From Kordia sp. SMS9 (GTDB lineage Bacteria > Bacteroidota > Bacteroidia > Flavobacteriales > Flavobacteriaceae): a stretch of DNA of 64,000 nucleotides. Both the position numbers and the translations under genes were made by a program. Each line of letters starts with the position of its first letter. Positions within the stretch are counted from its first letter, which is position 1. The notes under the pieces were generated by a model that saw nothing but the letters and a program-made list of their open reading frames with translations, searched no databases and was not told where the DNA came from. The stretch covers positions 858,465-922,464 of the forward strand of contig NZ_CP031153.1 of NCBI RefSeq assembly GCF_003352465.1, given 5' to 3'. This document shows, piece after piece, positions 5,585 through 60,209 of the stretch.

Positions 5585-5590
5585 CAACAA

Positions 5591-8817: not shown

Positions 8818-8865
8818 CATACGCTGTTTTTAATACCTACCGAAAGGTGTTTTGGCGTACTTATT

Positions 8866-8901: not shown

Positions 8902-8921
8902 TTGATTTCAACGCCAACTAC

Positions 8922-11283: not shown

Positions 11284-12996
11284 ATGTATCTTACAAAACT
11301 TTCTTCTTCCACACTTCTGTTTACAGGTATTGCAATTCTTTTTTTCTGTTCGCTTTCGCTAAATGCACAAACCGATTCGTTACAAGGAAAATCGTATGAG
11401 GAATTGATTGGGTTGTATGATACAACTTTCTATGAAGATCCTGCCAAAGCCAATATGTATGCTGCAGCAGCTTATGAATTAGCAAAAAAAAATGGTGATC
11501 AAGAGAAATTAGTAATTGCAAAATATTATGTTGCGCGTTCTAAATACTATCTAACCAAATATTCCGAATCTACTAAAGATTTGGAAGAAGTAATTCGTAT
11601 TGCAACTGAAATTAGTGATAATGTATTACTATATAAAAGTCATAGCCTAAAGGGTAATAATTTATTTGAACAAAACAAACATCATGAAAGTTTAGATTTA
11701 TATCTTAAAGCAAAAAAATACGCAAAGCTTACCGATAATCCATTATTTATTGCAAGAATAAATATTAGCATCGCCTTTATAAAAAAGTTCCATAAAGATT
11801 ATGAGGAGGCTATTAATGTTTTATTAGAAAACTTAAAACTTCTAGAGCAGTATGATGGCGATGAAAAAAAGAAAAAAAATAATCAACGTACTGTTTTAAT
11901 GCAATTGGCAGATACCTATCTCAGAATCAAAAAACCTAAAGAAGCTGAACATTATAATGATTTGGCCTTAAAACTATCTCCCAAAGAAGAATTTCACGAT
12001 GCTTATTACTGGGGCTTCATGAATAAGGCTATTATAGAGTATCAAAATAAAAATTTTGAAAAAAGTATTGAATACTCTAGACAAGTTGAAACATATTATA
12101 AAAACACAAATAAACTTTCCAATTTAGCAACACCCTATTTTTACATTGGAAAAAGTTTTTATGAATTGGGAAATAATTCCCAAGCAGTAGAATATTTAGA
12201 AAAAGCAATCGCGATTTCTGACGAGTTCAAATTAGATTTTCAAGAAAAAAAAGAAGTCTACAGATACTTAGATTTGGCGCATTCCCTATTAGGAAATTCG
12301 AAAAAAGCAAATGAATATTCTATAATGTTCTATGAATTAGATAAAAAAAATGACAGCCTCGATATTGCTTTAAATAATAGAATCAATAAAGAACATGACA
12401 TTATTCCACTCCAAGAGGAAATTGAATCGTTAGATAAAAACACCAAATACTTATATGTTTTTTCTGGGATTCTTTTAACCATATTAGTTAGTTTCTTTAT
12501 TTGGTTTAAACAAAGACAAAAACGTAATAAAAAACGCTTCCAAGAGTTGTTAATCACCATTGAAAAATTAGAACAACCTAAAAAAAAGAATTCACAAAAA
12601 ATCATTCCCAAAGAAACTTCAAATACAGTAACTGATAAAAACGCATTACAAATTCTAAAGGATTTAGAAAAATTTGAGGAAAAAGAATTTTACTTACGAA
12701 AGGATTGTACACTAAGCTATGTCGCCAAAAAACTAAAAACAAATACAACATATTTATCGAACGTAATCAACACCCATAAAGAAAAATCATTCAAATCGTA
12801 CCTGTCTGAATTACGCATCAATGCTGCCTTGATCCAACTGAAGAACAATCCTAAATTACGCTCATATACCGTCAAAGCCATCGCTGAAGAATTTGGTTTT
12901 AAACGTCCAGAAACCTTTTCAAGAGCTTTTAAAACACAAACCAATATGTACCCATCAAATTACATAAAAAACCTTGAAAATCAACAAATTACATAA
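11284..12996 (+). CDS. TPR / transmembrane / AraC-HTH regulator 2
   Basis: 570 residues, a close paralog of the 8922 gene. Both share the segment SLSLNAQTDSLQGKSYEEL (with Asn for the first Glu in copy 1) and similar C-terminal halves. A signal peptide ends at about residue 29. Periplasmic TPR repeats run to about residue 385. A membrane helix follows at about 395-415 (YLYVFSGILLTILVSFFIWF), and an AraC double helix-turn-helix ends the protein (LSYVAKKLKTNTTYLSNVIN; IKAIAEEF-type turn reading VKAIAEEFGFKRPETFSRAF). The TPR halves have diverged much more than the HTH halves, as expected if the two copies sense different ligands. Precursor 2 begins 89 bp downstream after a palindrome. Codon use is more A/T-rich than in the LanB operon. 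Confidence 0.82.
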   Translation: MYLTKLSSSTLLFTGIAILFFCSLSLNAQTDSLQGKSYEELIGLYDTTFYEDPAKANMYAAAAYELAKKNGDQEKLVIAKYYVARSKYYLTKYSESTKDLEEVIRIATEISDNVLLYKSHSLKGNNLFEQNKHHESLDLYLKAKKYAKLTDNPLFIARINISIAFIKKFHKDYEEAINVLLENLKLLEQYDGDEKKKKNNQRTVLMQLADTYLRIKKPKEAEHYNDLALKLSPKEEFHDAYYWGFMNKAIIEYQNKNFEKSIEYSRQVETYYKNTNKLSNLATPYFYIGKSFYELGNNSQAVEYLEKAIAISDEFKLDFQEKKEVYRYLDLAHSLLGNSKKANEYSIMFYELDKKNDSLDIALNNRINKEHDIIPLQEEIESLDKNTKYLYVFSGILLTILVSFFIWFKQRQKRNKKRFQELLITIEKLEQPKKKNSQKIIPKETSNTVTDKNALQILKDLEKFEEKEFYLRKDCTLSYVAKKLKTNTTYLSNVINTHKEKSFKSYLSELRINAALIQLKNNPKLRSYTVKAIAEEFGFKRPETFSRAFKTQTNMYPSNYIKNLENQQIT

Positions 12997-13085: not shown

Positions 13086-13331
13086 ATGAAATCACTAAAA
13101 CTGAAAAAAGTAAAAATCTCTCGCATAGGAAATCCCCATATCCTATTAGGAGGAGCAACCAATGGTGTTTGCACAACATTACCACCGCCACCGCCACCTG
13201 TAACATTGGATGAAGAATGCATGAATTCAATACGTAACCCTGAAGAATGTCCCACAAACACGAATACAACTGGAACTCGTACAATTGATCCAGGAGGAAT
13301 AGAAACAGTAGGTTGTGGGATTGGCGGTTAA
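13086..13331 (+). CDS. Lanthipeptide-type precursor peptide 2 with a polyproline core segment
   Basis: 81 residues. The leader MKSLKLKKVKISRIGNPH, ending in LLGG at about residues 20-23, is nearly identical to that of precursor 1. The core has four Cys and many Thr (GVCTTLP, a run of seven Pro, then EECMNSIR, EECPTNTNTTGTRT and ETVGCGIGG). Four Cys plus several Thr make it the best local substrate for LanB/LanC ring formation. The Pro run would separate an N-terminal ring from the C-terminal ones. It sits in the regulator 2 module and is followed by a terminator at 13359. The assignment to this pathway is by leader similarity and position. Confidence 0.72.
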   Translation: MKSLKLKKVKISRIGNPHILLGGATNGVCTTLPPPPPPVTLDEECMNSIRNPEECPTNTNTTGTRTIDPGGIETVGCGIGG

Positions 13332-13499: not shown

Positions 13500-13745
13500 A
13501 TGAAAAAACAAAAATTAGGATTGAACAAATTAAGTTTGACAAAATCAAGAATTGCAGAATTAAACCAATTAAGTGTTAAAGGAGGAAATCGAGAATCTAC
13601 AGCACCAGGTTGTATTCTTACAGGTGTCATTGATGGCTGCGAAATCACATCAAATTGTCCAGGAGGAGGAACTGGTGGTAATGGTGGCTCAAATGATCCA
13701 ACATGCAATACACAAGCTATTTTATCTTGCTTGTTTGCCTGCTAA
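13500..13745 (+). CDS. Lanthipeptide-type precursor peptide 3
   Basis: 81 residues. The leader is of a second type, MKKQKLGLNKLSLTKSRIAE, continuing to LNQLSVKGG (GG at about residues 32-33). It resembles the class I lanthipeptide leaders of Bacteroidetes, with L-x-L-x-K-x-S/T-I-A-x-L spacing, and the peptide at 19005. The core has six Cys and several Ser/Thr (APGCILTGVIDGCEITSNCP, a Gly/Asn-rich linker, then DPTCNTQAILSCLFAC). There is no regulator directly upstream; its own promoter would lie in 13391-13499. It ends in a bidirectional hairpin shared with the convergent exporter operon. Several Cys/Thr pairs and a Gly-rich hinge suggest two ringed lobes; this is inference. Confidence 0.72.
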   Translation: MKKQKLGLNKLSLTKSRIAELNQLSVKGGNRESTAPGCILTGVIDGCEITSNCPGGGTGGNGGSNDPTCNTQAILSCLFAC

Positions 13746-13820: not shown

Positions 13821-15173
13821 TTATTTTCGGCTAAACACTTCGCGCAATTGGTAGAAAATTCGCTGCATTACGGTCAATTCTTCCACAACAATTTCTGCCG
13901 TTCCTTCCATTTCTTGCTTAAAATCAATCGGTTTTTCAAACGAACTTTCTAAAGAATCTACTTTTAAATATGCCACATACATCGGCGGCCCACCTTGCAC
14001 ATCTAATTGTGGAACTCCTGAAATATTGATAATTTCACCCGATAAACTTCCCCATTCTTGGTACGGATAACTGTCTAATTTGATAATAACACGTTGTCCA
14101 ACTTCAATTTTCCCTGAATTCGCTACTGGAAAAGAAACACGTCCTATAATACCTTCAATTTGATCAGGAATTACGGTAAACAAATCTTGTCCCACATTTA
14201 CATTTTGATATTTTGACCAAATGTCAAAAACCGTTACTTCTCCTTTGATGGGCGATTTTAAGACAAATTGCTGTTCCCATTGTAAAATTTGGTTCTCCAA
14301 ATCTTGCTTGGCTTGCTCCAAATTTTGATCGGTCGAAATCTCTGAACTCTTATCGCCAACCGAAGCTTGACGCAGATTTCCTTCTAAGGTTAGGATGGAA
14401 TTTTGATCGTTTTCAATGCTCGATAGCGTTCCTTCGTACGCGCGTTTTGCACCATAATATATATTTTCTTGATCTTTAAATTCACGCTCAGAAACACTTC
14501 TACTCGCATACAAACGCTTAAACTTTTCATACCGCTTTTTGGTATTGGCAACTTCTAATTTTTGATATTCTAATTGATTTTGACTGTTGCGCAATCGGTT
14601 TCGAACTCTATTCAGTTGCAAACGTATATTGGACGCTTGATTCTTTTCGTTATTGAAAATAATATAATTCAAATACGTTAAATACTGCGCTCTAAACTGA
14701 TTGTACACGGCTTGAATCGGTCCTAATTTTAACTTTGATGGAAATGTATAATTCAACGAATCAAAATCGCGCTCACTTGGTATAAAATCTTCTAATTTCT
14801 TTTTTAAAAACTGTACATCCTCAAAATCTGCGGTATTTTCAATCACAGCCAATACTTCATCCACTTGTACTTTTTGCCCAGCTTCTACAAAAATACTTGT
14901 GAGTTTTCCTGAAGCTTTCGCCGTTAAATGTGCGGGCGGATTTTCTGAAGTAATCGTTACTCGTGCCGGAATGATATCGTTGTAACTCAACAAAGAAGAT
15001 CCTACAATAAACATAATAATTATGATAAACACGACCGAAATTCCCCATTGGATTACCCAATTCGGTGCTTGACCAAGGATTTCCTTGACCTGATCGGAAC
15101 GTTCATCAAGATCATTAATTTTCTTGCGTCTCTCTTCCTTCTTTTCTTCTGGTTTATCTTTCTTCTTAGCCAT
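13821..15173 (-). CDS. HlyD-family periplasmic adaptor of the peptide exporter
   Basis: 450 residues. A charged cytoplasmic start (MAKKKDKPEEKKEERRKK) precedes one membrane helix at about residues 40-60 (WGISVVFIIIIMFIVGSSLL). A biotinyl-lipoyl-like half (LTAKASGKLTSIFVEAGQKV) is followed by a long coiled coil at about 120-290 and the returning half (VLKSPIKGEVTVFDIWSKYQ). This is the normal architecture of membrane fusion proteins linking an inner membrane ABC exporter to an outer membrane channel. It starts 1 bp after the stop of the C39 ABC gene. No TolC-like channel gene is in the window. It probably exports the peptides matured by LanB/LanC and possibly other double-glycine peptides. Confidence 0.88.
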   Translation of the reverse strand: MAKKKDKPEEKKEERRKKINDLDERSDQVKEILGQAPNWVIQWGISVVFIIIIMFIVGSSLLSYNDIIPARVTITSENPPAHLTAKASGKLTSIFVEAGQKVQVDEVLAVIENTADFEDVQFLKKKLEDFIPSERDFDSLNYTFPSKLKLGPIQAVYNQFRAQYLTYLNYIIFNNEKNQASNIRLQLNRVRNRLRNSQNQLEYQKLEVANTKKRYEKFKRLYASRSVSEREFKDQENIYYGAKRAYEGTLSSIENDQNSILTLEGNLRQASVGDKSSEISTDQNLEQAKQDLENQILQWEQQFVLKSPIKGEVTVFDIWSKYQNVNVGQDLFTVIPDQIEGIIGRVSFPVANSGKIEVGQRVIIKLDSYPYQEWGSLSGEIINISGVPQLDVQGGPPMYVAYLKVDSLESSFEKPIDFKQEMEGTAEIVVEELTVMQRIFYQLREVFSRK

Positions 15174-15174
15174 A

Positions 15175-17382
15175 TTAATTTCCTAGCTCTAATTGATTTT
15201 TTACTAATGTGTAATATGCTCCGCGTTTAGCGGTTAACTCTTCGTGATTTCCTAATTCGATAATTTTTCCTTTATCCAACACGATAATCTGATCTGCATT
15301 TTTTACCGTACTCAAACGGTGCGCCACCACCACTACGGTTTTTCCTTTGTAGAATTCTTGTAAATTCTCCATAATGACTTTCTCGTTATTCGCATCCAAC
15401 GCACTGGTAGCTTCGTCAAAGAAAATATACTTCGGATCTTTGTACACAGATCGCGCAATTAAAATACGCTGCTTCTGTCCTCCCGAAACATTCACACCAC
15501 TGGAACCAATTTTGGTATTGTATCCCGATGGCAATTCTTCAATAAAATCTTCAATATTTGCCACTTTTACAGCGTGAATCAAACGTTGTTTGTCAATAAT
15601 TCCTTCGGAATCTGATTCGGTAATGTTTCGTGCAATCGTATCGCCAAACAAGAAACCATCTTGCATTACCGATCCGCACGCTCTTCGCCACGTTTTGGTA
15701 CTAATATCACCCAACTTGTGTGGTCCAATGTGCAGTGAACCTTCGTTAAATTCGTAGAATTTCAACAATAACTTAATCAGCGTTGTTTTTCCACTACCAC
15801 TCGCACCAACGATTGCCGTTACTTTTCCTTCTGGAATTTCTACGGTAAGATCATCCAAAATCAATGGCGAACTTTTTCCACCGTAACGGAAACTCGCATT
15901 GGTCATTTTAATGGTTTTATCTTCTGGTAATTCTTTGATATTTTCTTCAAAACGATCTTCTTCATCGTCTTTATTGTGAATCTCCGACAAACGCTCCAAA
16001 CTGATCTTAGCATCCTGTCCAGATTGAATGAACGTAATAAAATTGTTGATAGGTAAGTTTAACTGTCCAATGATATACTGAACCGAAAGCATCATACCCA
16101 AGGTAAACAACGGATCGTCAATTACAGAAGTCGCTGCGATATACGTAATAATGATATTTTTTAACTCGTTGATAAATCGTCCACCTGTATTTTGTGTCTG
16201 CGAAAGCGCCAATCCTTTGATCGAAATTTTAAACAAACGCACTTGAATTGCTTCCCATTCCCAACGTCTTCTACGTTCAGAACCGTTCAATTTAATTTCT
16301 TGCATTCCCGAAATCAACTGATACAAACTACTTTGGTTGTCGGAAGATTGATCGAAACGTTTGTAATCGAGTTCGGCTCTTTTCTTCATAAACAATAATG
16401 TCCATCCAATATATAACGCCGATCCTACAAAGAATACAATAAAGATTTGCATGTTGTAATACGCCAAAACGCCACCAAAAATAAACATATTAAAGGCAGA
16501 AAACAGCGTGTTTAAGGTTGTAGACGATAAGAAACTCTGAATTCGGTTGTGATCGTAAATACGTTGTATAATATCTCCTGTATTTTTAGAATCGAAAAAG
16601 GCAATCGGCAAACGCATCAACTTGATTAAGAAATCGGAAATCAGGTTGATGTTGATCCGACTCGTCATGTGTAGCAGAATCCAACCCCGAATCAGTTCGA
16701 CCGTGGTTTGCGAAATAAATAACGTTAACTGCGCAATTAAGATCAGAAAGACAAAGTTTTTATTCTGATAATTAATACCGTAATCCACTACGGACTGCGT
16801 TAAGAACGGAAATATCAATTGCAGCAAACTCCCGACCAGCAATCCTAAAATTAACTGAAGTATGTATTTTTTATACGGTTTAAAATACCAAAAAAGAAAC
16901 TTAAAACCGTACTCTTTCTTTTCTTCCTTCTCCAATTCGTAAAACTCTGGAGTTGGCTCTAACAGCAACAAATAACCTTCGGCAGCATCTGGATCGGCTG
17001 AAGAACCTATCCAACCTTTTATAAAATCTTCTTTAGAATACTTTACCAAACCGTGTGCAGGATCGGCAACGTACACTTTATTTCTCTTTATCTTATAAAC
17101 TACCACAAAATGACGCTGTCTCCAATGTGCAATACACGGATACGGAACATCATCTACCAACGTTTTATAATCAACACTTACGGCAAGTGTGTGTAATCCA
17201 ATTTCTTCGGCAGCTTCAGCAATTCCGCCAAGGGAAACACCTTCACGGGTAATATTGGCTTTCTTTCGTAGAAAATCAATAGTGTAGGCACGTCCAAAAT
17301 GTTTTGCCACCATCCGCAAGCACGTTGGTCCGCAATCCATTTGATCTAACTGTCGGTAAAAAGGAAATTCTCTCTTTATCAT
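15175..17382 (-). CDS. C39-peptidase-containing ABC exporter (leader-cleaving)
   Basis: 735 residues, the usual length for a bacteriocin-type peptidase ABC transporter. The N-terminal C39 peptidase has Gln11 and catalytic Cys17 in RQLDQMDCGPTCLRM, and the His/Asp region IAHWRQRHFVVVY and YVADPAHG. Six membrane helices lie at about residues 165-440. The nucleotide-binding domain has Walker A GASGSGKTTL, signature VSGGQKQRI and Walker B IFFDEATSALD. The known role is cleaving after a double glycine and exporting the core peptide. It is transcribed with the HlyD adaptor, towards the precursor genes. All peptides with a GG leader here (10739, 13086, 13500, 19005, 60328, possibly the mini-peptides at 52 kb) are candidate cargo; that is inference. 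Confidence 0.92.
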   Translation of the reverse strand: MIKREFPFYRQLDQMDCGPTCLRMVAKHFGRAYTIDFLRKKANITREGVSLGGIAEAAEEIGLHTLAVSVDYKTLVDDVPYPCIAHWRQRHFVVVYKIKRNKVYVADPAHGLVKYSKEDFIKGWIGSSADPDAAEGYLLLLEPTPEFYELEKEEKKEYGFKFLFWYFKPYKKYILQLILGLLVGSLLQLIFPFLTQSVVDYGINYQNKNFVFLILIAQLTLFISQTTVELIRGWILLHMTSRININLISDFLIKLMRLPIAFFDSKNTGDIIQRIYDHNRIQSFLSSTTLNTLFSAFNMFIFGGVLAYYNMQIFIVFFVGSALYIGWTLLFMKKRAELDYKRFDQSSDNQSSLYQLISGMQEIKLNGSERRRRWEWEAIQVRLFKISIKGLALSQTQNTGGRFINELKNIIITYIAATSVIDDPLFTLGMMLSVQYIIGQLNLPINNFITFIQSGQDAKISLERLSEIHNKDDEEDRFEENIKELPEDKTIKMTNASFRYGGKSSPLILDDLTVEIPEGKVTAIVGASGSGKTTLIKLLLKFYEFNEGSLHIGPHKLGDISTKTWRRACGSVMQDGFLFGDTIARNITESDSEGIIDKQRLIHAVKVANIEDFIEELPSGYNTKIGSSGVNVSGGQKQRILIARSVYKDPKYIFFDEATSALDANNEKVIMENLQEFYKGKTVVVVAHRLSTVKNADQIIVLDKGKIIELGNHEELTAKRGAYYTLVKNQLELGN

Positions 17383-19004: not shown

Positions 19005-19199
19005 TTAGAAACAGCCTGTTCCGTCGAAAGTTTCACAAGCACGCTCAGCTGCATCTGTAAACCATTCGTGTGGCTCATCACCTGGTCCAGCTGGATCAGC
19101 ACCACAATTGTAAGATGCTGGAGGTTTTCCTCCAAATACGTGTAATTTCGCTACAGACTTCTTGTTTAATCTTAAAGAATTTAAATTTCTCTTTTTCAT
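19005..19199 (-). CDS. Lanthipeptide-type precursor peptide 4
   Basis: 64 residues. The leader MKKRNLNSLRLNKKSVAKLH, ending in VFGG at about residues 21-24, has the L-x-L-x-K-x-S-V-A-K-L pattern of Bacteroidetes class I lanthipeptide precursors and resembles precursor 3. The core has three Cys (SYNCGAD, ERACET and the C-terminal GTGCF) with few Ser/Thr, so few rings are possible. It is transcribed towards the exporter, 1.6 kb from it, and separated by the AAA15 ATPase. About 590 bp without genes lie upstream, filled by two repeat elements. Confidence 0.65.
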   Translation of the reverse strand: MKKRNLNSLRLNKKSVAKLHVFGGKPPASYNCGADPAGPGDEPHEWFTDAAERACETFDGTGCF

Positions 19200-50195: not shown

Positions 50196-51635
50196 ATGAA
50201 AAAACTAAGTCTATTTTGTATTTCAATCTTGTTTTTTTTCTCGTGCGATACGAAAAAGAAAGAAGCTGAAAATACGCCAACACCAAAAGAAGTCGCAATC
50301 GCGGATGTTTCTCAAGACATGATGGAAAGTGCCGTGATTTATGAAGCCAACATTCGTCAGTATTCGAAAGAAGGTTCTTTTGATGCATTCACCAAAGATA
50401 TTCCACAACTGAGAGAATTAGGCGTAAAAGTGATTTGGCTTATGCCAATTTTCCCAATTTCAGAAACCAAGCGTAAAGCTACTGGTGGCGAATTTGCTAG
50501 TGAAATTGAAGATCCTGAAGAACGAAAGAAGTATTTAGGAAGTTACTACGCCGTGTCTGATTTTAGGAAAATAAATCCTGAATTTGGAACGATTGACGAT
50601 TTTAGAAAGCTTGTAAAAACCGCGCATGATAATGATATTTATGTGATTTTGGATTGGGTTCCAAATCATACAGGTTGGGATCATACTTGGTTGAAAACGA
50701 ATCCTGAATTTTATACTAAAAACGACAAAGGTGAGATTACCGATCCGTTAAATGAAGACGGAGTGCCTGTAGGTTGGGCTGATGTGGCTGATTTAAACTA
50801 CGATAATAAGAAATTGCGCAAAGCCATGGTAAAAGACATGCAATATTGGTTGACGGAAGAAAATGTTGATGGTTTCCGTTGCGATGTGGCAGGTTCAGTT
50901 CCCACTGATTTTTGGGTAGAAGCAATTCCACAATTACGCGAAAAGAAAGCTATTTTTATGCTTGCAGAAGCTTGGGAACCGGAATTGTTGAAAGGGAATT
51001 TGTTTGATATGGCGTACGGATGGGACACGCATCATAAAATGAATCATATTGCAAAAGGTGAAGAAACCGTTGCCGATTGGGACAAGCGTATGCAACAGAT
51101 TGATTCTTTGTACGAAGCTGATGATATTTTGATGAATTTTGTGACCAATCACGATGAAAATTCATGGAATGGAACGATTGAAGAACGTATGGGCGAAGGT
51201 GCCAAAGCGTTTACGGCTTTGAGTTTTGTAGCGCCAGGAATGCCGTTGATTTATTCAGGACAAGAATACGATATGAAACATCGTTTGAAATTCTTCGAGA
51301 AAGATGAAATTCCAAAAACCAAAGGTGACATGTGGCCTTTGTTGGCAAAATTAGGAACGCTTAAAAATACACATGTTGCCTTACACGGCGGAAAAAATGC
51401 CGCTTCATACACAAAACTTACTACAGGCGAATCCACTAAGGTATTAGCATTTAAACGTGAAAAAGACGGTAAGAAAGTGTACTATATTGGTAATCTGTCA
51501 AAAGAGCACACAAACGCTACTATTGATCTTTCTGGAGCGTTTACGGACTATATAACAGGAGAAAAAATAACTTTTGCCAAAAACGAAGATTTCGCATTAC
51601 GTCCTTGGCAATATATGGTATTGCTTGCGGAATAA
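50196..51635 (+). CDS. GH13 alpha-amylase lipoprotein
   Basis: 479 residues. A lipobox (FFFSCDTKK, Cys17) anchors it. The GH13 core is complete: VILDWVPNHTGWDH, Asp230 in DGFRCDVAG, Glu258 in MLAEAWEPE and Asp320 in TNHDENSW. It is compact, without extra carbohydrate-binding domains. Role: cell-surface or periplasmic endo-hydrolysis of alpha-1,4-glucan, comparable to SusG. It closes the plus-strand arm of the locus; no perfect terminator follows within 100 bp. Confidence 0.92.
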   Translation: MKKLSLFCISILFFFSCDTKKKEAENTPTPKEVAIADVSQDMMESAVIYEANIRQYSKEGSFDAFTKDIPQLRELGVKVIWLMPIFPISETKRKATGGEFASEIEDPEERKKYLGSYYAVSDFRKINPEFGTIDDFRKLVKTAHDNDIYVILDWVPNHTGWDHTWLKTNPEFYTKNDKGEITDPLNEDGVPVGWADVADLNYDNKKLRKAMVKDMQYWLTEENVDGFRCDVAGSVPTDFWVEAIPQLREKKAIFMLAEAWEPELLKGNLFDMAYGWDTHHKMNHIAKGEETVADWDKRMQQIDSLYEADDILMNFVTNHDENSWNGTIEERMGEGAKAFTALSFVAPGMPLIYSGQEYDMKHRLKFFEKDEIPKTKGDMWPLLAKLGTLKNTHVALHGGKNAASYTKLTTGESTKVLAFKREKDGKKVYYIGNLSKEHTNATIDLSGAFTDYITGEKITFAKNEDFALRPWQYMVLLAE

Positions 51636-51909: not shown

Positions 51910-52002
51910 TTATATACCTCCGATTTCTTCAATGATTGAACCGCCAACAATAAGTTGTGTGTTTTCGATTTGATACTGTGCTAATTGCTCTATTGTTTTC
52001 AT
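51910..52002 (-). CDS. Tandem 30-residue double-glycine mini-peptide, copy 1
   Basis: 30 residues: a leader MKTIEQLAQYQIENTQLIVG ending in GG at residues 20-21, then a nine-residue tail SIIEEIGGI. The two genes upstream (52033, 52174) code for clear paralogs of identical length, with K-x-I-x-Q-L-x-x-Y-Q-x-E-N-x-Q-x-I-V-G-G and I-I-E-E followed by G-I all kept. Many third-position and spacer differences with few amino-acid changes argue for a translated peptide. A GG motif at this place is the usual cut site for C39 peptidase exporters, and one is encoded at 15175. Only nine to ten residues would be released, the size of a signalling peptide. I recognise no named family; the function is unknown. 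Confidence 0.6.
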   Translation of the reverse strand: MKTIEQLAQYQIENTQLIVGGSIIEEIGGI

Positions 52003-52032
52003 GTGAATGTGTTTTAAGAATTTATAATACGG

Positions 52033-52125
52033 TTATATACCGTCATTTTCTTCAATGATTGAACCGCCAACAATCTGTTGTACATTTTCAATTTGATATT
52101 CTTCTAATTGATGTATTGTTTTCAT
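52033..52125 (-). CDS. Tandem 30-residue double-glycine mini-peptide, copy 2
   Basis: 30 residues, leader MKTIHQLEEYQIENVQQIVG then G and the tail SIIEENDGI. It differs from copy 1 at nine positions, none of them in the Y-Q-I-E-N, I-V-G-G or S-I-I-E-E blocks. The spacer before its start codon (CACATTCAC just upstream of ATG, with a TTAAAA tract) is shared with copy 1, so gene plus spacer were duplicated with a 123-bp period. Each copy probably has its own translation start; no strong Shine-Dalgarno is seen, as usual in Bacteroidetes. Confidence 0.6.
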   Translation of the reverse strand: MKTIHQLEEYQIENVQQIVGGSIIEENDGI

Positions 52126-52173
52126 GTGAATGTGTTTTTAAAATTTGTAATAGAATTAATGCTACTGAAAAAA

Positions 52174-52266
52174 CTAAATTCCTCCGCCTTCTTCTATAAT
52201 AAAACCACCAACAATGAGTTGTGTGTTTTCGGTTTGATACTGTTGTAATTGATCTATTGCTTTCAT
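52174..52266 (-). CDS. Tandem 30-residue double-glycine mini-peptide, copy 3
   Basis: 30 residues, leader MKAIDQLQQYQTENTQLIVG then G and the tail FIIEEGGGI. It is the most upstream copy and so probably lies nearest the promoter, which would be in 52267-52400. It lacks the CACATTCAC spacer of the other two copies. The Ser after the GG is replaced by Phe, while I-I-E-E and the final Gly-Ile are kept, which points to a conserved C-terminal tail rather than a chance frame. Confidence 0.58.
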   Translation of the reverse strand: MKAIDQLQQYQTENTQLIVGGFIIEEGGGI

Positions 52267-52400
52267 ACTAAATAAGTTTATATGATTTATATTGAAAACT
52301 AAAGTATTAAAGTGCCATGACAGATACTAATAATGCATCTGACGATTCCGTGAATTATATGAAATTTGTAGTGGAAAAATATGAAATGCCTTTTTTCAGG

Positions 52401-53098: not shown

Positions 53099-53638
53099 AT
53101 GGAAGAAAAAAATTTACAAACAGCTACGATTGGCGGCGGTTGTTTTTGGTGTACGGAAGCCGTTTTTCAGGAAGTAAAAGGCGTGGAAACCATTGTTTCT
53201 GGATATACAGGCGGAACAGCTCCTGGTGTACCAACGTATAGAGAGATTTGCTCTGGACTTACAGGGCATGCCGAAGTGGTACAATTGACATTTGATTCGG
53301 ATGTGATTTCGTATCAAGAGATTTTGATCATTTTTATGGCTACGCACGATCCTACGACATTGAATCGGCAAGGTGCTGATGTGGGAACGCAGTATCGCTC
53401 GGTTATTTATTATCATACTGAACAACAAAAGCAAACAGCCGAAGTTGTTATCAAAGAACTTTCTGAATATTATGATGATCCTATTGTAACCGAATTAACT
53501 GCGGCTGAAACTTTTCATAAAGCCGAAGCTGAACATCAAAATTATTACAGACAACACCAACAGCAAGGATATTGCAGTTACGTGATTACGCCTAAGCTAA
53601 CAAAACTTCGCAAGCTGTTTGCCAACAAGTTGAAGTAA
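53099..53638 (+). CDS. msrA: Peptide-methionine (S)-S-oxide reductase MsrA
   Basis: 179 residues, full MsrA length. The active-site motif IGGGCFWCTEAVFQ is present with catalytic Cys15 and Cys18, along with ETIVSGYTGG and GHAEVVQLTFD. Late FHKAEAEHQNYYRQH and the YCSYVI segment provide the resolving Cys. It repairs oxidised methionine; cytoplasmic, no signal peptide. It stands alone with its own terminator at 53660. A housekeeping gene between two peptide loci. Confidence 0.95.
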   Translation: MEEKNLQTATIGGGCFWCTEAVFQEVKGVETIVSGYTGGTAPGVPTYREICSGLTGHAEVVQLTFDSDVISYQEILIIFMATHDPTTLNRQGADVGTQYRSVIYYHTEQQKQTAEVVIKELSEYYDDPIVTELTAAETFHKAEAEHQNYYRQHQQQGYCSYVITPKLTKLRKLFANKLK

Positions 53639-54370: not shown

Positions 54371-55444
54371 TTATGCAAAAACAGTATTTACACTTTCTTC
54401 CTTATCTGCCCAAACTCCCGTGTAAGGATCGTATTGACATTTTGCAGGTTTGGAATGTAAGTCTCCATCAGTAGTGTAGGCTCTACAGTCTGTACAGATG
54501 TATCTGTATTCGCAGTCTTTACAGCCATCAATATTGTCTTTGTTGATATTCCATGGTTTTTGGAATTCTGTATCATCTGCAATTTTTGTCAAGGAAATGT
54601 TGTTTACATGTCCGTATGATTTTTCCATAGAAGGGCAGTTTTTGATGTTTCCAGTTTCATCAATTGAGATTTTTCTATTTAGGCATCCGTTGTGTTTTAT
54701 GTTTTCGGTAAATCCTTTTACATCTCTAATTCGCATTGAGTTGATATTGACCAATCCGCAACCTTCACAACCGCTCACTTTTTGTTTGGTATAGCCCAAA
54801 CTTCCATGATATACTTTTGCTCTGTTTTTAGCTTCAGGTTCTTCATCAAAAAGCTCCATTTCATAAGTGTGGTACGTAACTTGAGCAATTTCATATTTGT
54901 CTAATAGTGCTTTTATTTCTGCTTCTTTCCCGTCGTATTCAATTAAAAAGTCAACAGATCTAAAGTTTTTTCCAACAGTGAGTGCCAATATTTCTTCTAG
55001 TTTGGAAACTGGTAATTGACAATATGCTCTAATTTGGATATGGTAACATGCCAAGACTTCTAATTCGTTAAAAATCTTATTAAAATCGTGCATTTCGTCA
55101 CGAATGTCTATGATAGAATTGATAATTTTTGATGGATGATCCCATTCTAATTCCATTGACGGGAATCGATCTAGAGTATCCACAACAATTGCCAACTCAA
55201 TATCTAATAAGTAATCAATAAATTCTTTAAAGTAGATGAGATCTTCTTCTCCGTCGAGCATTTGGGCAACTGTCCCAATATTGTTGTCTTTTAATACTGA
55301 TAATAATTCATAGTATGAATTATCTACAAAGTATACTTTTTGTCTAGAAACATCGCATAGCATTGTTCTTGTGTGTCCTTTTACAGGAAAACAATCTGCG
55401 AATAGATAGAGATATTTATCTTGTATGGTGGCTAATTCTTTCAT
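54371..55444 (-). CDS. gwsS: SPASM-domain peptide maturase, grasp-with-spasm system
   Basis: 357 residues. The C-terminal SPASM-type Cys cluster is clear, with SGCEGCGLVN, HNGCLNRK, KNCPSMEKS, DGCKDCEYRYICTDC and PAKCQYDP from about residue 230 to 345. The N-terminal half looks like a degraded radical-SAM barrel: I see no C-x3-C-x2-C motif, only isolated Cys18, Cys30 and Cys at about 133 and 142. The known family is the SPASM partner of the ATP-grasp ligase in Bacteroidetes peptide systems. It starts 4 bp after the small ORF at 55449. Whether it still uses S-adenosylmethionine or only binds iron-sulfur clusters or the peptide is open. Confidence 0.85.
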   Translation of the reverse strand: MKELATIQDKYLYLFADCFPVKGHTRTMLCDVSRQKVYFVDNSYYELLSVLKDNNIGTVAQMLDGEEDLIYFKEFIDYLLDIELAIVVDTLDRFPSMELEWDHPSKIINSIIDIRDEMHDFNKIFNELEVLACYHIQIRAYCQLPVSKLEEILALTVGKNFRSVDFLIEYDGKEAEIKALLDKYEIAQVTYHTYEMELFDEEPEAKNRAKVYHGSLGYTKQKVSGCEGCGLVNINSMRIRDVKGFTENIKHNGCLNRKISIDETGNIKNCPSMEKSYGHVNNISLTKIADDTEFQKPWNINKDNIDGCKDCEYRYICTDCRAYTTDGDLHSKPAKCQYDPYTGVWADKEESVNTVFA

Positions 55445-55448
55445 CTTA

Positions 55449-55655
55449 TTATCTTTTAATTTCTGTGGTATCTACAATTTTTGAAATTGGTTTATCGGAT
55501 CCTGAATAGAAAATAATACTACTGTATTTTTCACTGTAAGCGGTTCTATAAAAAGGATCGGAAGGCAGCATCTCATTATATATAAGGTAATTATAAAATA
55601 ATGGTAAGTTTTCTAATTGTGGTTCGCTAATTGGTAATTTCTTTAATTTTATCAT
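55449..55655 (-). CDS. Small conserved-position protein between gwsG and gwsS
   Basis: 68 residues: MIKLKKLPISEPQLENLPLF at the start, then NYLIYNEMLPSDPFYRTAYS and IIFYSGSDKPI. No signal peptide, double glycine or Cys. It is packed with gaps of 2 bp to gwsG and 4 bp to gwsS, so it belongs to the maturation operon. It could be a recognition or chaperone subunit, as small partners do in other peptide pathways; that is inference. Confidence 0.65.
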   Translation of the reverse strand: MIKLKKLPISEPQLENLPLFYNYLIYNEMLPSDPFYRTAYSEKYSSIIFYSGSDKPISKIVDTTEIKR

Positions 55656-55657
55656 GG

Positions 55658-56659
55658 TTACAAGATTTTAGCAATTTTTCGTTCTAAGTAGTAGTTACAA
55701 GGCGCCGACGTCATTCCAAATTGTCCAACAGGATTTACTTCTAAAAAGATGTAATTATTGTCTTCATCGACCAAAATGTCTATGGATCCTGTGTTTAATT
55801 GCAGCTCGTTCATGATATCAATCAATCCTTGTTTTACATGATGTGGTAAATTATATGGCACTTTCCGTTGTGGATTTTCTTGATCGGTATGTTTTCTAAA
55901 ATCAACTACCGTATCTGCACGTTTTTGCGAGAAAATTGCCATTGAGTAGAATTCTTCATTGAGATAAAAAACTCTGAGTTCGTATTTTTTCTTGATTTCT
56001 TCTTGGAGTAATGATGGGAAGAAACGATCTGGTAGTTGGTCCAAACTCTCTTCTGTAATTCGCTCGGTATATGAATAATATCCGTACGAATCTGTAAAGT
56101 GATATACACCTTGACTGATGGCTTTGGTAACTACAAAATTTGCATCTGTATTTGCTAAAATTCTACGAATTCCGTCTTTAGTTGTAACTACATAACTTTT
56201 TGGAATAGGAACGTTGTACTTTTTAGCAATTTCTAATACAATGAGCTTGTTTACATCTGTACTGATATAATTTCCAATTGCTGTTACATCTTGTTGTAAG
56301 ATATAGTGAAAATACTCCATGAGTACTTTATACTCTGAGTTGATGTGATTTTTGTGATAGTTTGGTGTATCAAATAGGATTCCTTTTTCAAGTTCGTCAA
56401 AGTTGATGGCTACATTTTTTAATGAAAAACCTCGTCTTCTATGCCAAATGGATGAAATATTGAACAAGTTATGCTCTTCTCCATGTTTGGAAACGGTCAA
56501 TTCTCTATCGTCAATATCAAGAAAATGCAAACGTGCTTTGTCATCGTCCGTATTGAGGCGAATGTATGGCTTGTTGTATTTTACAAGCCATTCTATTACA
56601 TTGCTTGTACTTCCATCATCTTGACGGCTAAGTACTAGTATTTTTTCATCGTTTTCCAT
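55658..56659 (-). CDS. gwsG: ATP-grasp ligase, grasp-with-spasm system
   Basis: 333 residues. The N-terminus KILVLSRQDDGSTSNVIEWL and the ATP-grasp core (VTAIGNYISTDVNKLIVLEI; PSLLQEEIKKKYELRVFYL) match graspetide-type ligases. The metal-binding motif SIDILVDEDNNYIFLEVNP carries the expected D and E-x-N. Known relatives join Asp/Glu side chains to Ser/Thr or Lys of a precursor, giving ester or amide rings. It starts 4 bp after the stop of the nearest precursor gene. The acidic and Ser/Thr-rich cores at 56664-57997 are suitable substrates. Confidence 0.88.
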   Translation of the reverse strand: MENDEKILVLSRQDDGSTSNVIEWLVKYNKPYIRLNTDDDKARLHFLDIDDRELTVSKHGEEHNLFNISSIWHRRRGFSLKNVAINFDELEKGILFDTPNYHKNHINSEYKVLMEYFHYILQQDVTAIGNYISTDVNKLIVLEIAKKYNVPIPKSYVVTTKDGIRRILANTDANFVVTKAISQGVYHFTDSYGYYSYTERITEESLDQLPDRFFPSLLQEEIKKKYELRVFYLNEEFYSMAIFSQKRADTVVDFRKHTDQENPQRKVPYNLPHHVKQGLIDIMNELQLNTGSIDILVDEDNNYIFLEVNPVGQFGMTSAPCNYYLERKIAKIL

Positions 56660-56663
56660 GTTG

Positions 56664-56846
56664 TTAAAATTTTCCAGGAGTCATTGACTCATACTCAAGA
56701 TCAACTTCCGTTTCTGCCATCGCTTTTAACGTATGGGTTTTTGAGTAGGTGTCTTGTGTACTTTTAGTTGGTTCAATAGCACCAGCTCTGATCGCTGATA
56801 ACTCCATTTTAGACATTTCTTTGATTTCTGATTTTGCTAGTTTCAT
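56664..56846 (-). CDS. Grasp-with-spasm precursor peptide 1
   Basis: 60 residues from the ATG at 56846; the frame extends upstream to 56921, but this start gives the family leader MKLAKSEIKEMSKMELSAIR followed by AGAI in place of GG. The core has Thr/Ser and Glu/Asp (STQDTYSKTHTLKAMAETEV, then DLEYESMTPGKF). It is directly before gwsG (4 bp), so it shares that transcript. The leader block K-E-M-x-x-x-x-L-x-x-I-x-(G/A)-G is common to all five precursors. Confidence 0.78.
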   Translation of the reverse strand: MKLAKSEIKEMSKMELSAIRAGAIEPTKSTQDTYSKTHTLKAMAETEVDLEYESMTPGKF

Positions 56847-57101
56847 AATGACTGATTTTTGTGGTTTAAAGATGTGTTTGTAATACAAATTTGAATCAGT
56901 AATACGTGTAAGCAACAGCAAATAATCTGTTGTTAGGAATACATAGCAAAGTGATGTAGAAGATTAGCGTTTCGCTTAAATTAGTGTGGTAAATATCGTT
57001 AGATCACTTGTGTGCTTGCTTTCTAATTTCCTAAGTTTTTAAGAAGAATATACTGTATTAACTTTGTGTTACGTACTGATGATTCTTTGTGTGTTTTGAA
57101 A

Positions 57102-57133
57102 TGTGTAGGCAATACTATTTACATTGCCTACAC
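57102..57133 (-). terminator. Hairpin between precursor genes 2 and 1
   Basis: An 11-bp stem, GTGTAGGCAAT with ATTGCCTACAC, with a 10-nt loop but only a weak T-run on the minus strand. It could attenuate read-through from the precursor cluster into the maturation operon. Confidence 0.55.
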
Positions 57134-57188
57134 GTACAATATTTAGTAAATAGTTTGATAATTACTGGTATTTTAGGCAAATTCAAGA

Positions 57189-57350
57189 CTAGTTTCCGTA
57201 TTCTCCTTCCGCTTCAGCTTCAGAAGATGAACGTGCACTGTATGAATCTGTGTTTGTTTGTGTTTGTCCATCTGAACTTTTAACACCACCAGCAATCACT
57301 TTTAGTTTTTCTGGTTGCATTTCTTTGATGCCTTTTTTGTTGATTTTCAT
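57189..57350 (-). CDS. Grasp-with-spasm precursor peptide 2
   Basis: 53 residues from the ATG at 57350. Leader MKINKKGIKEMQPEKLKVIA then GG at residues 21-22. The core is Ser/Thr/Gln-rich then acidic: VKSSDGQTQTNTDSYSARSS and SEAEAEGEYGN. Alternating hydroxyl residues followed by Glu clusters suit ester ring formation by the ATP-grasp enzyme. The upstream 20 bp (AATCAATTCT before ATG) match those of precursor 3, showing tandem duplication. Confidence 0.75.
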   Translation of the reverse strand: MKINKKGIKEMQPEKLKVIAGGVKSSDGQTQTNTDSYSARSSSEAEAEGEYGN

Positions 57351-57385
57351 AAGAATTGATTTAATAGTTAGTATAGCAATCAATA

Positions 57386-57556
57386 CTATTTTGTTGATGT
57401 AGGCATAGGTGTCTCGTATTCCGTTTCTATGGGCGCACGAGCACTTGCTCTTCTCGAAATAGTTTGTGTATCACTATTTTCTTCTTTTTTTCCACCACGA
57501 ATTACTTTTAATTCTTCTGGCTGCATTTCTTTGACCTTCTTATTATTAAGTTTCAT
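57386..57556 (-). CDS. Grasp-with-spasm precursor peptide 3
   Basis: 56 residues, start at 57556. Leader MKLNNKKVKEMQPEELKVIR then GG. The core begins KKEENSDTQTISRRASARAP and ends IETEYETPMPTSTK. Compared with precursor 2 the leader is nearly the same while the core is quite different, with Arg-rich and Pro-rich parts. Confidence 0.72.
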   Translation of the reverse strand: MKLNNKKVKEMQPEELKVIRGGKKEENSDTQTISRRASARAPIETEYETPMPTSTK

Positions 57557-57592
57557 GAGAATTGATTTAAATAGTTAAGATTTCAGTAAGCA

Positions 57593-57760
57593 CTAGCATT
57601 TTGGTGCTGGTGTTTCACAGTCTGCCTCTACTGAACTGGTAGCTTTTACCCTTATGGTAACTGTATAGGTATCATCATCAGAATGTTTTTTTATACCGCC
57701 ACGAATTGCTTTTAGCTGCTTTGGTTTCATTTCTTCGATACCTTTTTTACTGATTTTCAT
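57593..57760 (-). CDS. Grasp-with-spasm precursor peptide 4
   Basis: 55 residues, start at 57760. Leader MKISKKGIEEMKPKQLKAIR then GG. The core is IKKHSDDDTYTVTIRVKATS followed by SVEADCETPAPKC, the only one of the five with Cys (two). The end ETPxP is shared with precursor 3. The two Cys raise the possibility of a disulfide or a thioether made by the SPASM protein. Confidence 0.72.
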   Translation of the reverse strand: MKISKKGIEEMKPKQLKAIRGGIKKHSDDDTYTVTIRVKATSSVEADCETPAPKC

Positions 57761-57790
57761 ATTGTTGGGTTTTGTTTGATTGTTATATAC

Positions 57791-57820
57791 TAATGACTGC
57801 TTTGTTGGAAGCAGCCATTA
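57791..57820 (-). terminator. Hairpin between precursor genes 5 and 4
   Basis: TAATGACTGCTT pairs with AAGCAGCCATTA with one mismatch around a 6-nt loop. Confidence 0.55.
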
Positions 57821-57835
57821 GTTATAAATTAACTA

Positions 57836-57997
57836 TTACTTAGAAGCTTCTGCTTCTGCTTCTGCTTCTGCAGATGAGCGAAAACTTGCTGTTGCTGTTG
57901 CAGTTGCAGTATCACCGTCAACTTTGCTTAATCCTCCAGAGATTGCTTCTAATTCTTGAGATGTCATTTCCTTTACGTTCTTTTTATTTAATTTCAT
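57836..57997 (-). CDS. Grasp-with-spasm precursor peptide 5, low-complexity core
   Basis: 53 residues, start at 57997. Leader MKLNKKNVKEMTSQELEAIS then GG. The core is almost pure repeat: an (Ala-Thr)n stretch, ATATATASF, then SSAEAEAEAEASK. At the DNA level the Ala-Glu part is a (TTCTGC)n hexanucleotide run at about 57847-57872, and the Ala-Thr part is a related GTTGC(T/A) run at 57889-57910. Its 5' leader carries the element shared with 2725-2775. Confidence 0.74.
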   Translation of the reverse strand: MKLNKKNVKEMTSQELEAISGGLSKVDGDTATATATASFRSSAEAEAEAEASK

Positions 57998-58397: not shown

Positions 58398-60209
58398 GTG
58401 AAAAATTATACTCAAAATTTAGTCCCTTTTGCATGCATTTTCGCAGGTTTTTTCCGCGAAAAACGCAAGGTTACGTTTCAATTCTTCACTTTTTTATTGC
58501 TTTTTTCTTCAATTTCAGTGCATGCACAACTTAGTTCGGGTACTTTTGAGGATCTAAAATCAGCGTTTCATAATGCTCCTAAAGGTTCTACAGCAGCCTT
58601 AAACGCAGCAAATATGTATCTGGCGAAAGCCAAAGAAGTGAATGAAGTACGGCGAATTGTAGCTGGTTATGAGTTATTTATTTCCTATCATAGTCATACC
58701 CCAAAAGCGGTTTCTTATACAGATAGTATCATTTTATTAACCAAAAACACCAAGCTTGAAACGTATCAAGCGGAAGGTTATTTGTTGAAAGGAATTCAGC
58801 TATACTACAATTCTCAGTACAATGATGCACTTACCAATTTTGCAACCGCGAATGATATGGCGCTTGCTACTAAAAACATTAGACAACAAATTTCCATTAA
58901 ACATTATATAGGATTGCTTAAAAATGTAAGCGAAGAACGTGAAGAAGCTTTGAAGATTTTTCAAGAGAATATTGACTTTATTCGCAAGAATAATTTTGAA
59001 AAGAAAAACCCTGAACAATATTTAAAGTCATTATTTGCATTGGCGAACTCCTATAATAAGAATCGTGTATTAGATTCTGCCGAAGTTGTAAACCAGCGCG
59101 GTATTAAAGCCAGTCTACAACATCCGAATCAATATTTGTACCCTTGGTTTTTAACCTCTTATGGTGTTACTTCTTATTATAAAGAGAATTATAATTCTGG
59201 GATTGACAGCCTACTGAAAGCCACTAAATTTTTAAAAAATAACGAAAAAGCCTTGTGTTCTAATTACCTTTATATATATAGGTGTTTGGAAAAGCAAGGT
59301 AAAAACGATGCTGGAATTAATTATTTGTATAAGGTAGATTCTATATATCAGCAAAAACCAAAGGTTATTTTTCAAGCTAGGGAAGCGTATGAGTTTTTAA
59401 ATAGAGAATATAAAGCCGCAAACAATCCGGAGAAACAATTGGCAACTATTGAAAAGTTGTTGGCTGTAGATGAAAGTATTACAGACGAATATCAAAATTT
59501 AGGAAAAGAAATCGTTCAAAAGTATGATACACATTTAATGATTTCGGAAACAGCCGTTTTACTCAATCAAAAAGAAGAACTCATCCATCAATTACAAGAC
59601 AAAAACTTTTTATCACAGAAAAAAGTAACGGTACTTATTATTATATCTATCTTATTTTTGTTGATCATTTTTTACTTTTTTAGAAGAAATGTGGTGTACA
59701 AAAGACGCTTCAAAATATTGATGCAAACCTATGACCAAAAGAAACTTGAAAAAGAAAATGCACAAAAGGAAACCACTACTAGTATTGAAAAAGAAATTGT
59801 AGTCTCATCTGCTCAAAAAGAAAGTATTGGATTGCCAAAAGAAATTGTAGCACCAATTTTAGTGAAGCTTAAAAAGTTTGAAGACACACATCGTTATACC
59901 AAAAAAAATTACACACTTACTAAACTGGCAAAAGAGCTTGATACCAATAGTACCTACTTGTCAAAAATTATCAATATGACCAAAGGAATGAACTTTGCCA
60001 AGTATATGAATGAGATCAGAATTGATTATGCAATTACACGATTGAAGGAAGATAAACGCTTTCGTTCCTACACAATTAAAGCTATTGCACAAGAAGTTGG
60101 TTTCAATAATGCACAGTCATTTTCCATCGCTTTTCATAAAAAAACAGGGATTAATCCATCGTACTTTCTAAAGCAACTTGAAAATCAAAAACAAGTATTA
60201 ACTACTTGA
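58398..60209 (+). CDS. TPR / transmembrane / AraC-HTH regulator 3
   Basis: 603 residues from a GTG at 58398, chosen because the first in-frame ATG would remove the signal sequence (KVTFQFFTFLLLFSSISVHA at about residues 24-43). TPR repeats fill about residues 55-400 in the predicted periplasm (for example EGYLLKGIQLYYNSQYNDAL). A membrane helix lies at about 416-434 (VTVLIIISILFLLIIFYFF). The C-terminal AraC double helix-turn-helix reads LTKLAKELDTNSTYLSKIIN and IKAIAQEVGFNNAQSFSIAF. The layout matches the regulators at 8922 and 11284, but similarity is lower. It is divergent from the grasp-with-spasm precursors and followed 118 bp later by a lanthipeptide-type precursor, so it may control both. 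Confidence 0.8.
   Translation: MKNYTQNLVPFACIFAGFFREKRKVTFQFFTFLLLFSSISVHAQLSSGTFEDLKSAFHNAPKGSTAALNAANMYLAKAKEVNEVRRIVAGYELFISYHSHTPKAVSYTDSIILLTKNTKLETYQAEGYLLKGIQLYYNSQYNDALTNFATANDMALATKNIRQQISIKHYIGLLKNVSEEREEALKIFQENIDFIRKNNFEKKNPEQYLKSLFALANSYNKNRVLDSAEVVNQRGIKASLQHPNQYLYPWFLTSYGVTSYYKENYNSGIDSLLKATKFLKNNEKALCSNYLYIYRCLEKQGKNDAGINYLYKVDSIYQQKPKVIFQAREAYEFLNREYKAANNPEKQLATIEKLLAVDESITDEYQNLGKEIVQKYDTHLMISETAVLLNQKEELIHQLQDKNFLSQKKVTVLIIISILFLLIIFYFFRRNVVYKRRFKILMQTYDQKKLEKENAQKETTTSIEKEIVVSSAQKESIGLPKEIVAPILVKLKKFEDTHRYTKKNYTLTKLAKELDTNSTYLSKIINMTKGMNFAKYMNEIRIDYAITRLKEDKRFRSYTIKAIAQEVGFNNAQSFSIAFHKKTGINPSYFLKQLENQKQVLTT

What the first reader, a model, noticed from the sequence alone, without database searches (positions are those of the whole stretch)
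51910..52266. Three tandem 30-residue double-glycine mini-genes without a known family
Three paralogs of identical length share M-K-(T/A)-I-x-Q-L-x-x-Y-Q-x-E-N-x-Q-x-I-V-G-G and a 9-residue tail x-I-I-E-E-x-x-G-I. Two share their 5' spacer too. The tails are too short for classical bacteriocins and contain no Cys, which fits a small secreted signal or a Glu-modified peptide. The genes are below the size limits of most annotation programs, so they may be generally missed.
Basis: seen in the sequence. Interest (0 to 1): 0.8.

Follow-up and report, generated by a model that had tools for sequence, protein, structure and literature searches.

The report
Orphan genes for nine-residue secreted peptides
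Three tandem mini-genes in a Kordia-group marine bacterium belong to a scattered gene family that shares one leader sequence but carries many different short tails; a conserved export pump is predicted to cut off the leader, which would release nine-residue peptides, likely used as signals between cells.

Summary
In detail: three 30-residue ORFs on the minus strand share a leader ending in Gly-Gly and a nine-residue tail xIIEExxGI. They are protein-coding (dN<dS in 28 of 28 pairs of eight copies from three genomes). They are one branch of a family seen in 10 of 11 Kordia-group genomes and 13 other Flavobacteriaceae genomes: stand-alone mini-genes with one leader (M[LI]EKLxxFxIxNxxxIxGG) and many cargoes. 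In 397 Flavobacteriaceae genomes, 15 of 16 with such a gene encode a C39 peptidase/ABC exporter, against 104 of 381 others; the graspetide ATP-grasp is in only 6 of those 15. The same leader occurs in exporter operons of two other genera. Nine of 20 tails of this branch lack S, T, K and C, so the Glu-modified reading fails for them. Best reading: unmodified peptides exported in trans by the conserved exporter at 13821-17382; cleavage, secretion and a signalling role are inferred. The leader departs from the textbook C39 leader at -7/-8, so this is a new variant and not filed as a canonical member.

The parts
52174..52266 (-). mini-gene 1 of the array (30 aa, tail FIIEEGGGI)
   Evidence: ORF; purifying selection
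52033..52125 (-). mini-gene 2 (30 aa, tail SIIEENDGI)
   Evidence: ORF
51910..52002 (-). mini-gene 3 (30 aa, tail SIIEEIGGI)
   Evidence: ORF
52204..52266 (-). 21-codon leader of mini-gene 1, ending Gly-Gly
   Evidence: leader family alignment
52177..52203 (-). nine-codon tail of mini-gene 1 (predicted mature peptide)
   Evidence: tail statistics
52063..52125 (-). 21-codon leader of mini-gene 2
52036..52062 (-). nine-codon tail of mini-gene 2 (predicted mature peptide)
51940..52002 (-). 21-codon leader of mini-gene 3
51913..51939 (-). nine-codon tail of mini-gene 3 (predicted mature peptide)
52299..52306 (-). TACTTTAG, candidate -7 promoter box of the array (untested)
   Evidence: same box upstream of the G001 array and of the G005 copy; relaxed boxes in 16 of 43 first genes against 39 of 371 larger genes, the strict box in 4 of 43 against 23 of 371 (pattern chosen after looking)
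15175..17382 (-). C39 peptidase/ABC exporter, the candidate exporter in trans (about 34.5 kb from the array)
   Evidence: PF03412 over cut-off; orthologue in all 11 Kordia-group genomes; Cys17 in DCGPTC
13821..15173 (-). HlyD-like adaptor next to the exporter
   Evidence: TIGR01843 E 1e-23, below that family's curated cut-off

Best explanation
Each mini-gene encodes a 30-residue precursor with the leader and Gly-Gly ending of a scattered gene family; the leader is predicted to dock on the C39 domain of the conserved exporter encoded at 13821-17382 and to be cut after Gly-Gly, which would release an unmodified nine-residue peptide, likely a signal to other cells. Shown here: the genes are under purifying selection; the leader is shared by dozens of stand-alone genes in Kordia and some other Flavobacteriaceae; genomes with such genes nearly always also have a C39 exporter; the same leader sits in exporter operons of two other genera. 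Inferred: recognition by this particular exporter, cleavage, passage through the HlyD-like adaptor and an outer-membrane channel, absence of modification, and the signalling role, which rests on cargoes kept across species, no maturation or immunity gene recognised next door, and tails that often lack any residue for the usual peptide cross-links.
For: Purifying selection. One leader, many cargoes, in 10 of 11 genus genomes at E<=1. C39 exporter in 15 of 16 peptide-positive genomes against 104 of 381 others, Fisher 9e-8; 15 of 15 and 7e-9 without the weakest hit; 10 of 10 against 78 of 227 genera. Exporter orthologue in 11 of 11 Kordia-group genomes, 93.6-98.2% identical over about 626 residues in the ten others. 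Leader-family precursors in operons with a C39 exporter in G299 and G401, and 3.5 kb from one in G177: 3 of 16 non-Kordia loci. Two precursors beside the window's own exporter share the V/I(-10), N(-8), P(-7), V/L(-4) pattern. Nine of 20 tails have no S, T, K or C.
Against: The leader lacks the canonical Leu(-7)/Glu(-8): -7 is hydrophobic in 31%, -8 is Asn in 89 of 118. The exporter is 34.5 kb away and lies beside lanthipeptide-type precursors that could by themselves explain its conservation; G007 has the exporter but no family match at E<=1. In the window's own branch the tail is less conserved than the leader, 0.64 against 0.75. Two copies are broken by an in-frame stop. The genomes compared are related, so the p-values are too small. 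No receptor was found; no expression or secretion data.
Confidence: 0.55

Rival explanations
1. The tails are interference peptides (unmodified mini-bacteriocins) exported by the same pump, the tandem copies raising dose or variety.
For: One relative is named 'Bacteriocin' in UniRef (P0006). Tandem arrays with varying tail ends: 3 genes here, 4 in G001.
Against: Nine acidic residues without Cys; no exporter or immunity-like gene recognised beside the array, though neighbours elsewhere were judged by eye from a cut listing; several sister cargoes are held nearly fixed across species.
Confidence: 0.2
2. The tails are precursors of modified peptides, matured in trans by the grasp-with-spasm enzymes or another maturase, and only then exported.
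For: The array lies 2-4 kb from the grasp-with-spasm genes here and in G001, and in G004 a family gene lies next to them. In G299 leader-family precursors share an operon with the ATP-grasp and SPASM enzymes, in G401 with the ATP-grasp.
Against: Nine of 20 tails have no S, T, K or C. The ATP-grasp was found in only 6 of 15 peptide-positive genomes. Of 27 ATP-grasp loci in the genus, 24 have no convincing family gene within the stretch scanned.
Confidence: 0.15
3. The ORFs are untranslated or decaying relics, or tiny intracellular proteins that are never exported.
For: Two copies of the branch carry an in-frame stop (G000 C1:1174474, G008 C6:117837). No sigma-70-type promoter site and no terminator on the array's strand was found. 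No expression data.
Against: dN<dS in 28 of 28 pairs; Gly-Gly kept in 55 of 60 family ORFs and a shared 5' element; co-occurrence with C39 exporters.
Confidence: 0.07

Closest known systems
Double-glycine leader peptides of C39 peptidase ABC exporters (substrates of ComA, LahT, PCAT1; PMC6363468 and PMC6959990, passages)
   Same: Short leader ending Gly-Gly, hydrophobic -4 and -12, small cargo, co-occurrence with C39 exporters.
   Different: Asn at -8 and mostly P/A/T/S at -7 instead of Glu-Leu, hydrophobic -10, -15 and -18; the gene stands alone, far from the exporter; nine-residue cargo.
Grasp-with-spasm graspetide precursors (TIGR04192/TIGR04193 systems; branch 5 of PMC8939145, passages and part of section 6)
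   Same: Gly-Gly precursors in Bacteroidetes; in G299 and G401 such operons hold precursors with this leader.
   Different: Nine of 20 tails lack any S, T, K or C; 9 of 15 peptide-positive genomes have no such ATP-grasp; the window's own grasp-with-spasm precursors have a different, canonical leader.
Bacteroidetocins (PMC6671954, passages)
   Same: Bacteroidetes peptides with a Gly-Gly leader and a C39-type exporter; often missed by annotation.
   Different: Bacteroidetocins have 15-16-residue leaders, mature peptides of 42 residues with four Cys, and a dedicated locus with the exporter.
Prochlorosins (recalled, from no call)
   Same: One leader, many scattered genes with different cores.
   Different: As recalled, their cores are hypervariable and carry Cys for lanthionine rings; here no tail of this branch has Cys, and several sister cargoes are better conserved than the leader.

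Membership tests
Canonical C39 double-glycine leader peptides | Leader ends in Gly-Gly (or Gly-Ala/Gly-Ser) | tested here: met
   All three window peptides; 55 of 60 family ORFs
Canonical C39 double-glycine leader peptides | Hydrophobic residues at -4 and -12 | tested here: met
   118 of 118 at -4, 93% at -12, over leaders chosen for having Gly-Gly
Canonical C39 double-glycine leader peptides | Glu(-8)-Leu(-7) | tested here: not met
   -7 hydrophobic in 31%; -8 Asn in 89 of 118; consensus from PMC6363468 and PMC6959990
Canonical C39 double-glycine leader peptides | A C39 exporter in the same genome | tested here: met
   Window 15175-17382; 15 of 16 peptide-positive genomes
Canonical C39 double-glycine leader peptides | Cleavage after Gly-Gly and export | not testable with these tools
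   Needs a cleavage assay or mass spectrometry
Grasp-with-spasm graspetides | Core with Ser/Thr/Lys to bond to Asp/Glu | tested here: not met
   9 of 20 tails, FIIEEGGGI of the window among them, have none
Grasp-with-spasm graspetides | ATP-grasp in genomes with the peptide | tested here: not met
   6 of 15
Grasp-with-spasm graspetides | Precursor gene next to the ATP-grasp/SPASM genes | tested here: inconclusive
   2-4 kb away here and in G001, with other genes between; 1 adjacent and 24 without among the other 25 loci of the genus
Lanthipeptides | Cys in the core | tested here: not met
   No Cys in any of 20 tails
Bacteroidetocins | Mature peptide of about 42 residues with Cys, dedicated exporter locus | tested here: not met
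   Nine residues, no Cys, exporter 34.5 kb away

The most novel reading that the evidence does not exclude
Kordia and some other Flavobacteriaceae use a genome-wide vocabulary of short secreted peptides: up to 19 stand-alone mini-genes per genome, one non-canonical export leader, one shared exporter, and a set of distinct cargo words (IIEExxGI, ATEYIILL, TATDDLWKWRTN, SSQGxHCDAYG, KMADKAMNAMTQYISS), some nearly fixed across species or genera, which work as linear peptide signals in Gram-negative bacteria.
Probability: 0.33. Interest if true: 0.87.

Novelty: new variant of a known kind. Interest (0 to 1): 0.65.

Why it matters
Signalling by exported Gly-Gly peptides is best known from Gram-positive bacteria (my background knowledge). 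Here is a dispersed family in Gram-negative marine bacteria with a recognisable but non-canonical leader, several conserved cargoes and one likely exporter, mostly unnamed in databases because the genes are about 30 codons long and stand alone. It makes it testable whether these bacteria communicate by linear peptides, and it gives a leader profile with which to find more.

Tried and rejected
Pfam and NCBIfam scans of the three peptides: no match at E<=1. Promoter/terminator scan: no sigma-70-type site on either strand; one terminator-like site on the + strand, none on the array's strand. The Bacteroidetes-type -7 box is only weakly enriched. A downstream hairpin of the type GCGAAC..GTTCGC is within 70 nt of only 14 of 60 family genes, so it is not a family feature. 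Neighbour genes shared between loci were, as far as I could see, orthologous synteny and not a common partner (whose listing was cut). Grasp-with-spasm as the needed partner: rejected on counts. TPR-AraC regulators as receptors of this family: no close pairing, and the per-genome counts follow genome size at least as well (rho 0.74 against 0.81), so not claimed. AlphaFold model of the peptide: mean pLDDT 63, helix 2-13, too weak to use. Genome-collection scan: 84 stretches matched a pattern, 2 were confirmed, both uncultured Kordia.

Rows dropped and choices made after looking. In the co-occurrence test I dropped 5 of the 21 positive genomes (G087, G116, G328, G360, G384) because the match lay in an open frame above 200 aa; with all 21 kept it is 17 of 21 against 102 of 376, p 1e-6. 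The cut that removes G175 (E 0.0095, no exporter) was set after seeing it; both figures are given. The 20 tails were picked by a pattern that requires IxEE, so the constancy of those residues is partly by construction; one further copy with this leader, in G005, has the tail FIGATDGDI and was left out. Sister cargo groups were picked by a cargo motif, which favours cargo over leader. Leader statistics are over leaders picked for Gly-Gly.

Prior work was sought (open-access library only; listings seen, no paper on this family among them). Passages only were read of PMC6363468, PMC6959990, PMC6671954 and PMC11118758, and passages plus the first of three parts of section 6 of PMC8939145.

Full report
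1. What is there. On the minus strand the window holds three ORFs of 30 codons, 52266-52174, 52125-52033 and 52002-51910, with spacers of 48 and 30 nt. They are 77-80% identical to the last one, with 20 invariant columns. The flanking genes are an amylase-like gene (50196-51635, +) and an msrA-like gene (53099-53638, +) (both names are mine, from reading the translations). No Pfam or NCBIfam family matches the three at E<=1.

2. They are genes. A first search of 60 genomes, the window's own included, gave matches at E<=1 in 7; two of the 7, G014 and G019, are weak and unconvincing. Over nine copies, differences fall 248/193/395 on codon positions 1/2/3, and dN is below dS in 28 of 28 pairs of the eight closer copies, which come from three genomes (small sample, some dS near saturation). 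Two further copies are broken by an in-frame stop, one in the window's genome (C1:1174474) and one in G008 (C6:117837).

3. They are one branch of a larger family. A profile of 16 members has matches at E<=1 in 10 of 11 genomes of the genus: 13 in the window's genome, 19 in G001, 10 in G008, 9 in G005, 7 in G004, 4 in G003, 3 in G009, 2 in G010, 1 each in G006 and G002, 0 in G007 (the weakest are marginal). A second profile of 32 members finds 12 of the 13 places in the window's genome at E<=3e-7, the thirteenth being the broken copy, and 5 in G002 at E<=0.01. The genus is Kordia by source names of relatives on contigs of matching length: K. antarctica, K. algicida, K. periserrulae, Kordia sp. 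YSTF-M3 and two uncultured Kordia. Members share M(L/I)EKLxxFxIxNxxxIxGG followed by tails of 9 to about 48 residues. In the listings that I saw they sit alone or in short arrays among unrelated genes (cut). An upstream element ATTAAT-N(0-6)-TAAAA is found in 20 of 60 family ORFs against 6 of 374 larger genes from the same loci, and TTAAAA in 40 of 60 against 28 of 374 (patterns chosen after looking).

4. The cargo. For the window's branch I took 20 distinct 30-residue sequences, picked by a pattern that requires IxEE; one more copy with this leader, in G005, ends FIGATDGDI and was left out. In the 20, tail position 1 is F (11), S (8) or L (1), position 2 is I in all, position 8 is G in 17, position 9 is I, L, V or F. 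None has Cys; nine have no S, T, K or C. In four sister groups the cargo is better conserved than the leader: TEYII 0.94 against 0.72 (5 sequences), ATDDL-KWR 0.86 against 0.62 (26), HCDAYG 0.83 against 0.70 (7, one from another genus), KMADKAM 0.88 against 0.46 (17, some with unrelated leaders). In three groups it is not: the window's own branch 0.64 against 0.75 (20), NPECF 0.51 against 0.73 (5), GIPPD 0.59 against 0.62 (4). The sister groups were picked by cargo motif, which favours the cargo; the TEYII genes are, however, orthologues at one syntenic locus, and one more of that locus, ending VASTEYIIVF, fell below the cut.

5. The exporter. The C39 exporter at 15175-17382, next to an HlyD-like gene (13821-15173; below NCBIfam's cut-off for that family), has an orthologue in all 11 Kordia-group genomes, 93.6-98.2% identical in the ten others over about 626 residues. 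In 397 Flavobacteriaceae genomes, leader-family matches in small open frames were found in 16, three of them Kordia. Of the 16, 15 have a C39 exporter at E<=1e-15, against 104 of the 381 others (Fisher 9e-8). The exception, G175, is the weakest hit. Leaving it out, 15 of 15 against 104 of 382; by genus 10 of 10 against 78 of 227 (4e-5). With the five matches in long frames kept it is 17 of 21 against 102 of 376 (1e-6). The grasp-with-spasm ATP-grasp was found in 26 of the 397 and in 6 of the 15.

6. Same leader in exporter operons. In G299, leader-family precursors lie in a run of ATP-grasp, SPASM protein, C39 exporter and an unmatched 209-residue ORF. In G401 the run is ATP-grasp (just under its family's cut-off), a 135-residue ORF that reads like the end of a SPASM protein (not scanned), C39 exporter and an HlyD-like gene. 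In G177 a family gene lies 3.5 kb from a C39 exporter on the other strand. That is 3 of 16 non-Kordia loci fetched. In Kordia, of 27 ATP-grasp loci, one (G004 C56) has a clear family gene next to it, two (the window and G001) have the array 2-4 kb off, and 24 have none that is convincing in the stretch scanned. The leader therefore goes with the exporter more than with the modifying enzymes.

7. The leader differs from the textbook. Structures show leader residues -4, -7 and -12 in the peptidase groove and the consensus L(-12)xxxE(-8)L(-7)xxxxGG (PMC6959990 and PMC6363468, passages). Over 118 distinct leaders picked for Gly-Gly, -4 is hydrophobic in all, -12 in 93% (mostly F or Y), -10 in 91%, -15 in 98%, -18 in 97%, but -7 in only 31% (mostly P, A, T or S) and -8 is Asn in 89. 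Two longer precursors near the window's exporter (10739-10954, 13086-13331) share V/I(-10), N(-8), P(-7), V/L(-4), though not the aromatic -12, while a grasp-with-spasm-type precursor of the window (57836-57997) has the canonical Glu(-8)-Leu(-7). I call the family a variant and do not file it as a canonical member.

8. Why not a modified peptide or a bacteriocin. No Cys rules out lanthionines for the 20 tails, and nine of them have no side-chain partner for an ester or amide to Glu. No exporter or recognisable immunity gene is beside the array. The peptides are acidic and tiny. The signalling role is my inference from these exclusions and from cargo conservation; it is not a result, and the window's own branch is not among the groups whose cargo outdoes the leader.

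9. Limits. No expression, cleavage or secretion data were available. The genomes compared are related, so the p-values are too small. The family search can miss members, since at most 19 candidates per genome were scored. The exporter could be conserved for the lanthipeptide-type precursors beside it, and G007 keeps it without a family match. Prior work was sought in an open-access library only.

Noticed in passing
window 8922-10652 with 10739-10954, 11284-12996 with 13086-13331; loci L237-L256: TPR regulators with a C-terminal AraC-type HTH (14-47 matches per Kordia-group genome at E<=1e-20; Pfam) very often have a Gly-Gly, mostly Cys-rich precursor ORF close by: 42 such ORFs (3 counted twice because two regions overlap) in 38.3 kb within 800 nt of a regulator, against 13 in 205.8 kb further than 2.5 kb. 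These look like peptide/sensor or peptide/regulator pairs.
   Followed up: partly
P0002-P0021, L058:8384-8527: The cargo VTVNKAKMADKAMNAMTQYISS is nearly fixed while its leader changes completely, up to a Cyclobacteriaceae MAG (P0019).
   Followed up: no
window 54371-57997: A grasp-with-spasm operon: SPASM protein, ATP-grasp, and upstream at least four Gly-Gly precursors rich in Glu, Ser and Thr, with a TPR/AraC-type gene (58398-60209) divergent from them.
   Followed up: partly
window 4367-8750 and 13500-13745, 19005-19199: LanC-like and LanB-like genes (named by eye) with Cys-rich Gly-Gly precursors nearby: a likely class I lanthipeptide locus next to the C39 exporter.
   Followed up: no
window 28260-51635: A starch/maltodextrin utilisation locus (SusC/SusD-like, transporter, phosphorylase-like and several amylase-like ORFs, named by eye) lies beside the array.
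   Followed up: no
L052:9493-9552 (G000 C1:1174474) and L070 near 8835-8930 (G008 C6:117837): Broken copies of the window's branch, each with one in-frame stop in the leader.
   Followed up: no
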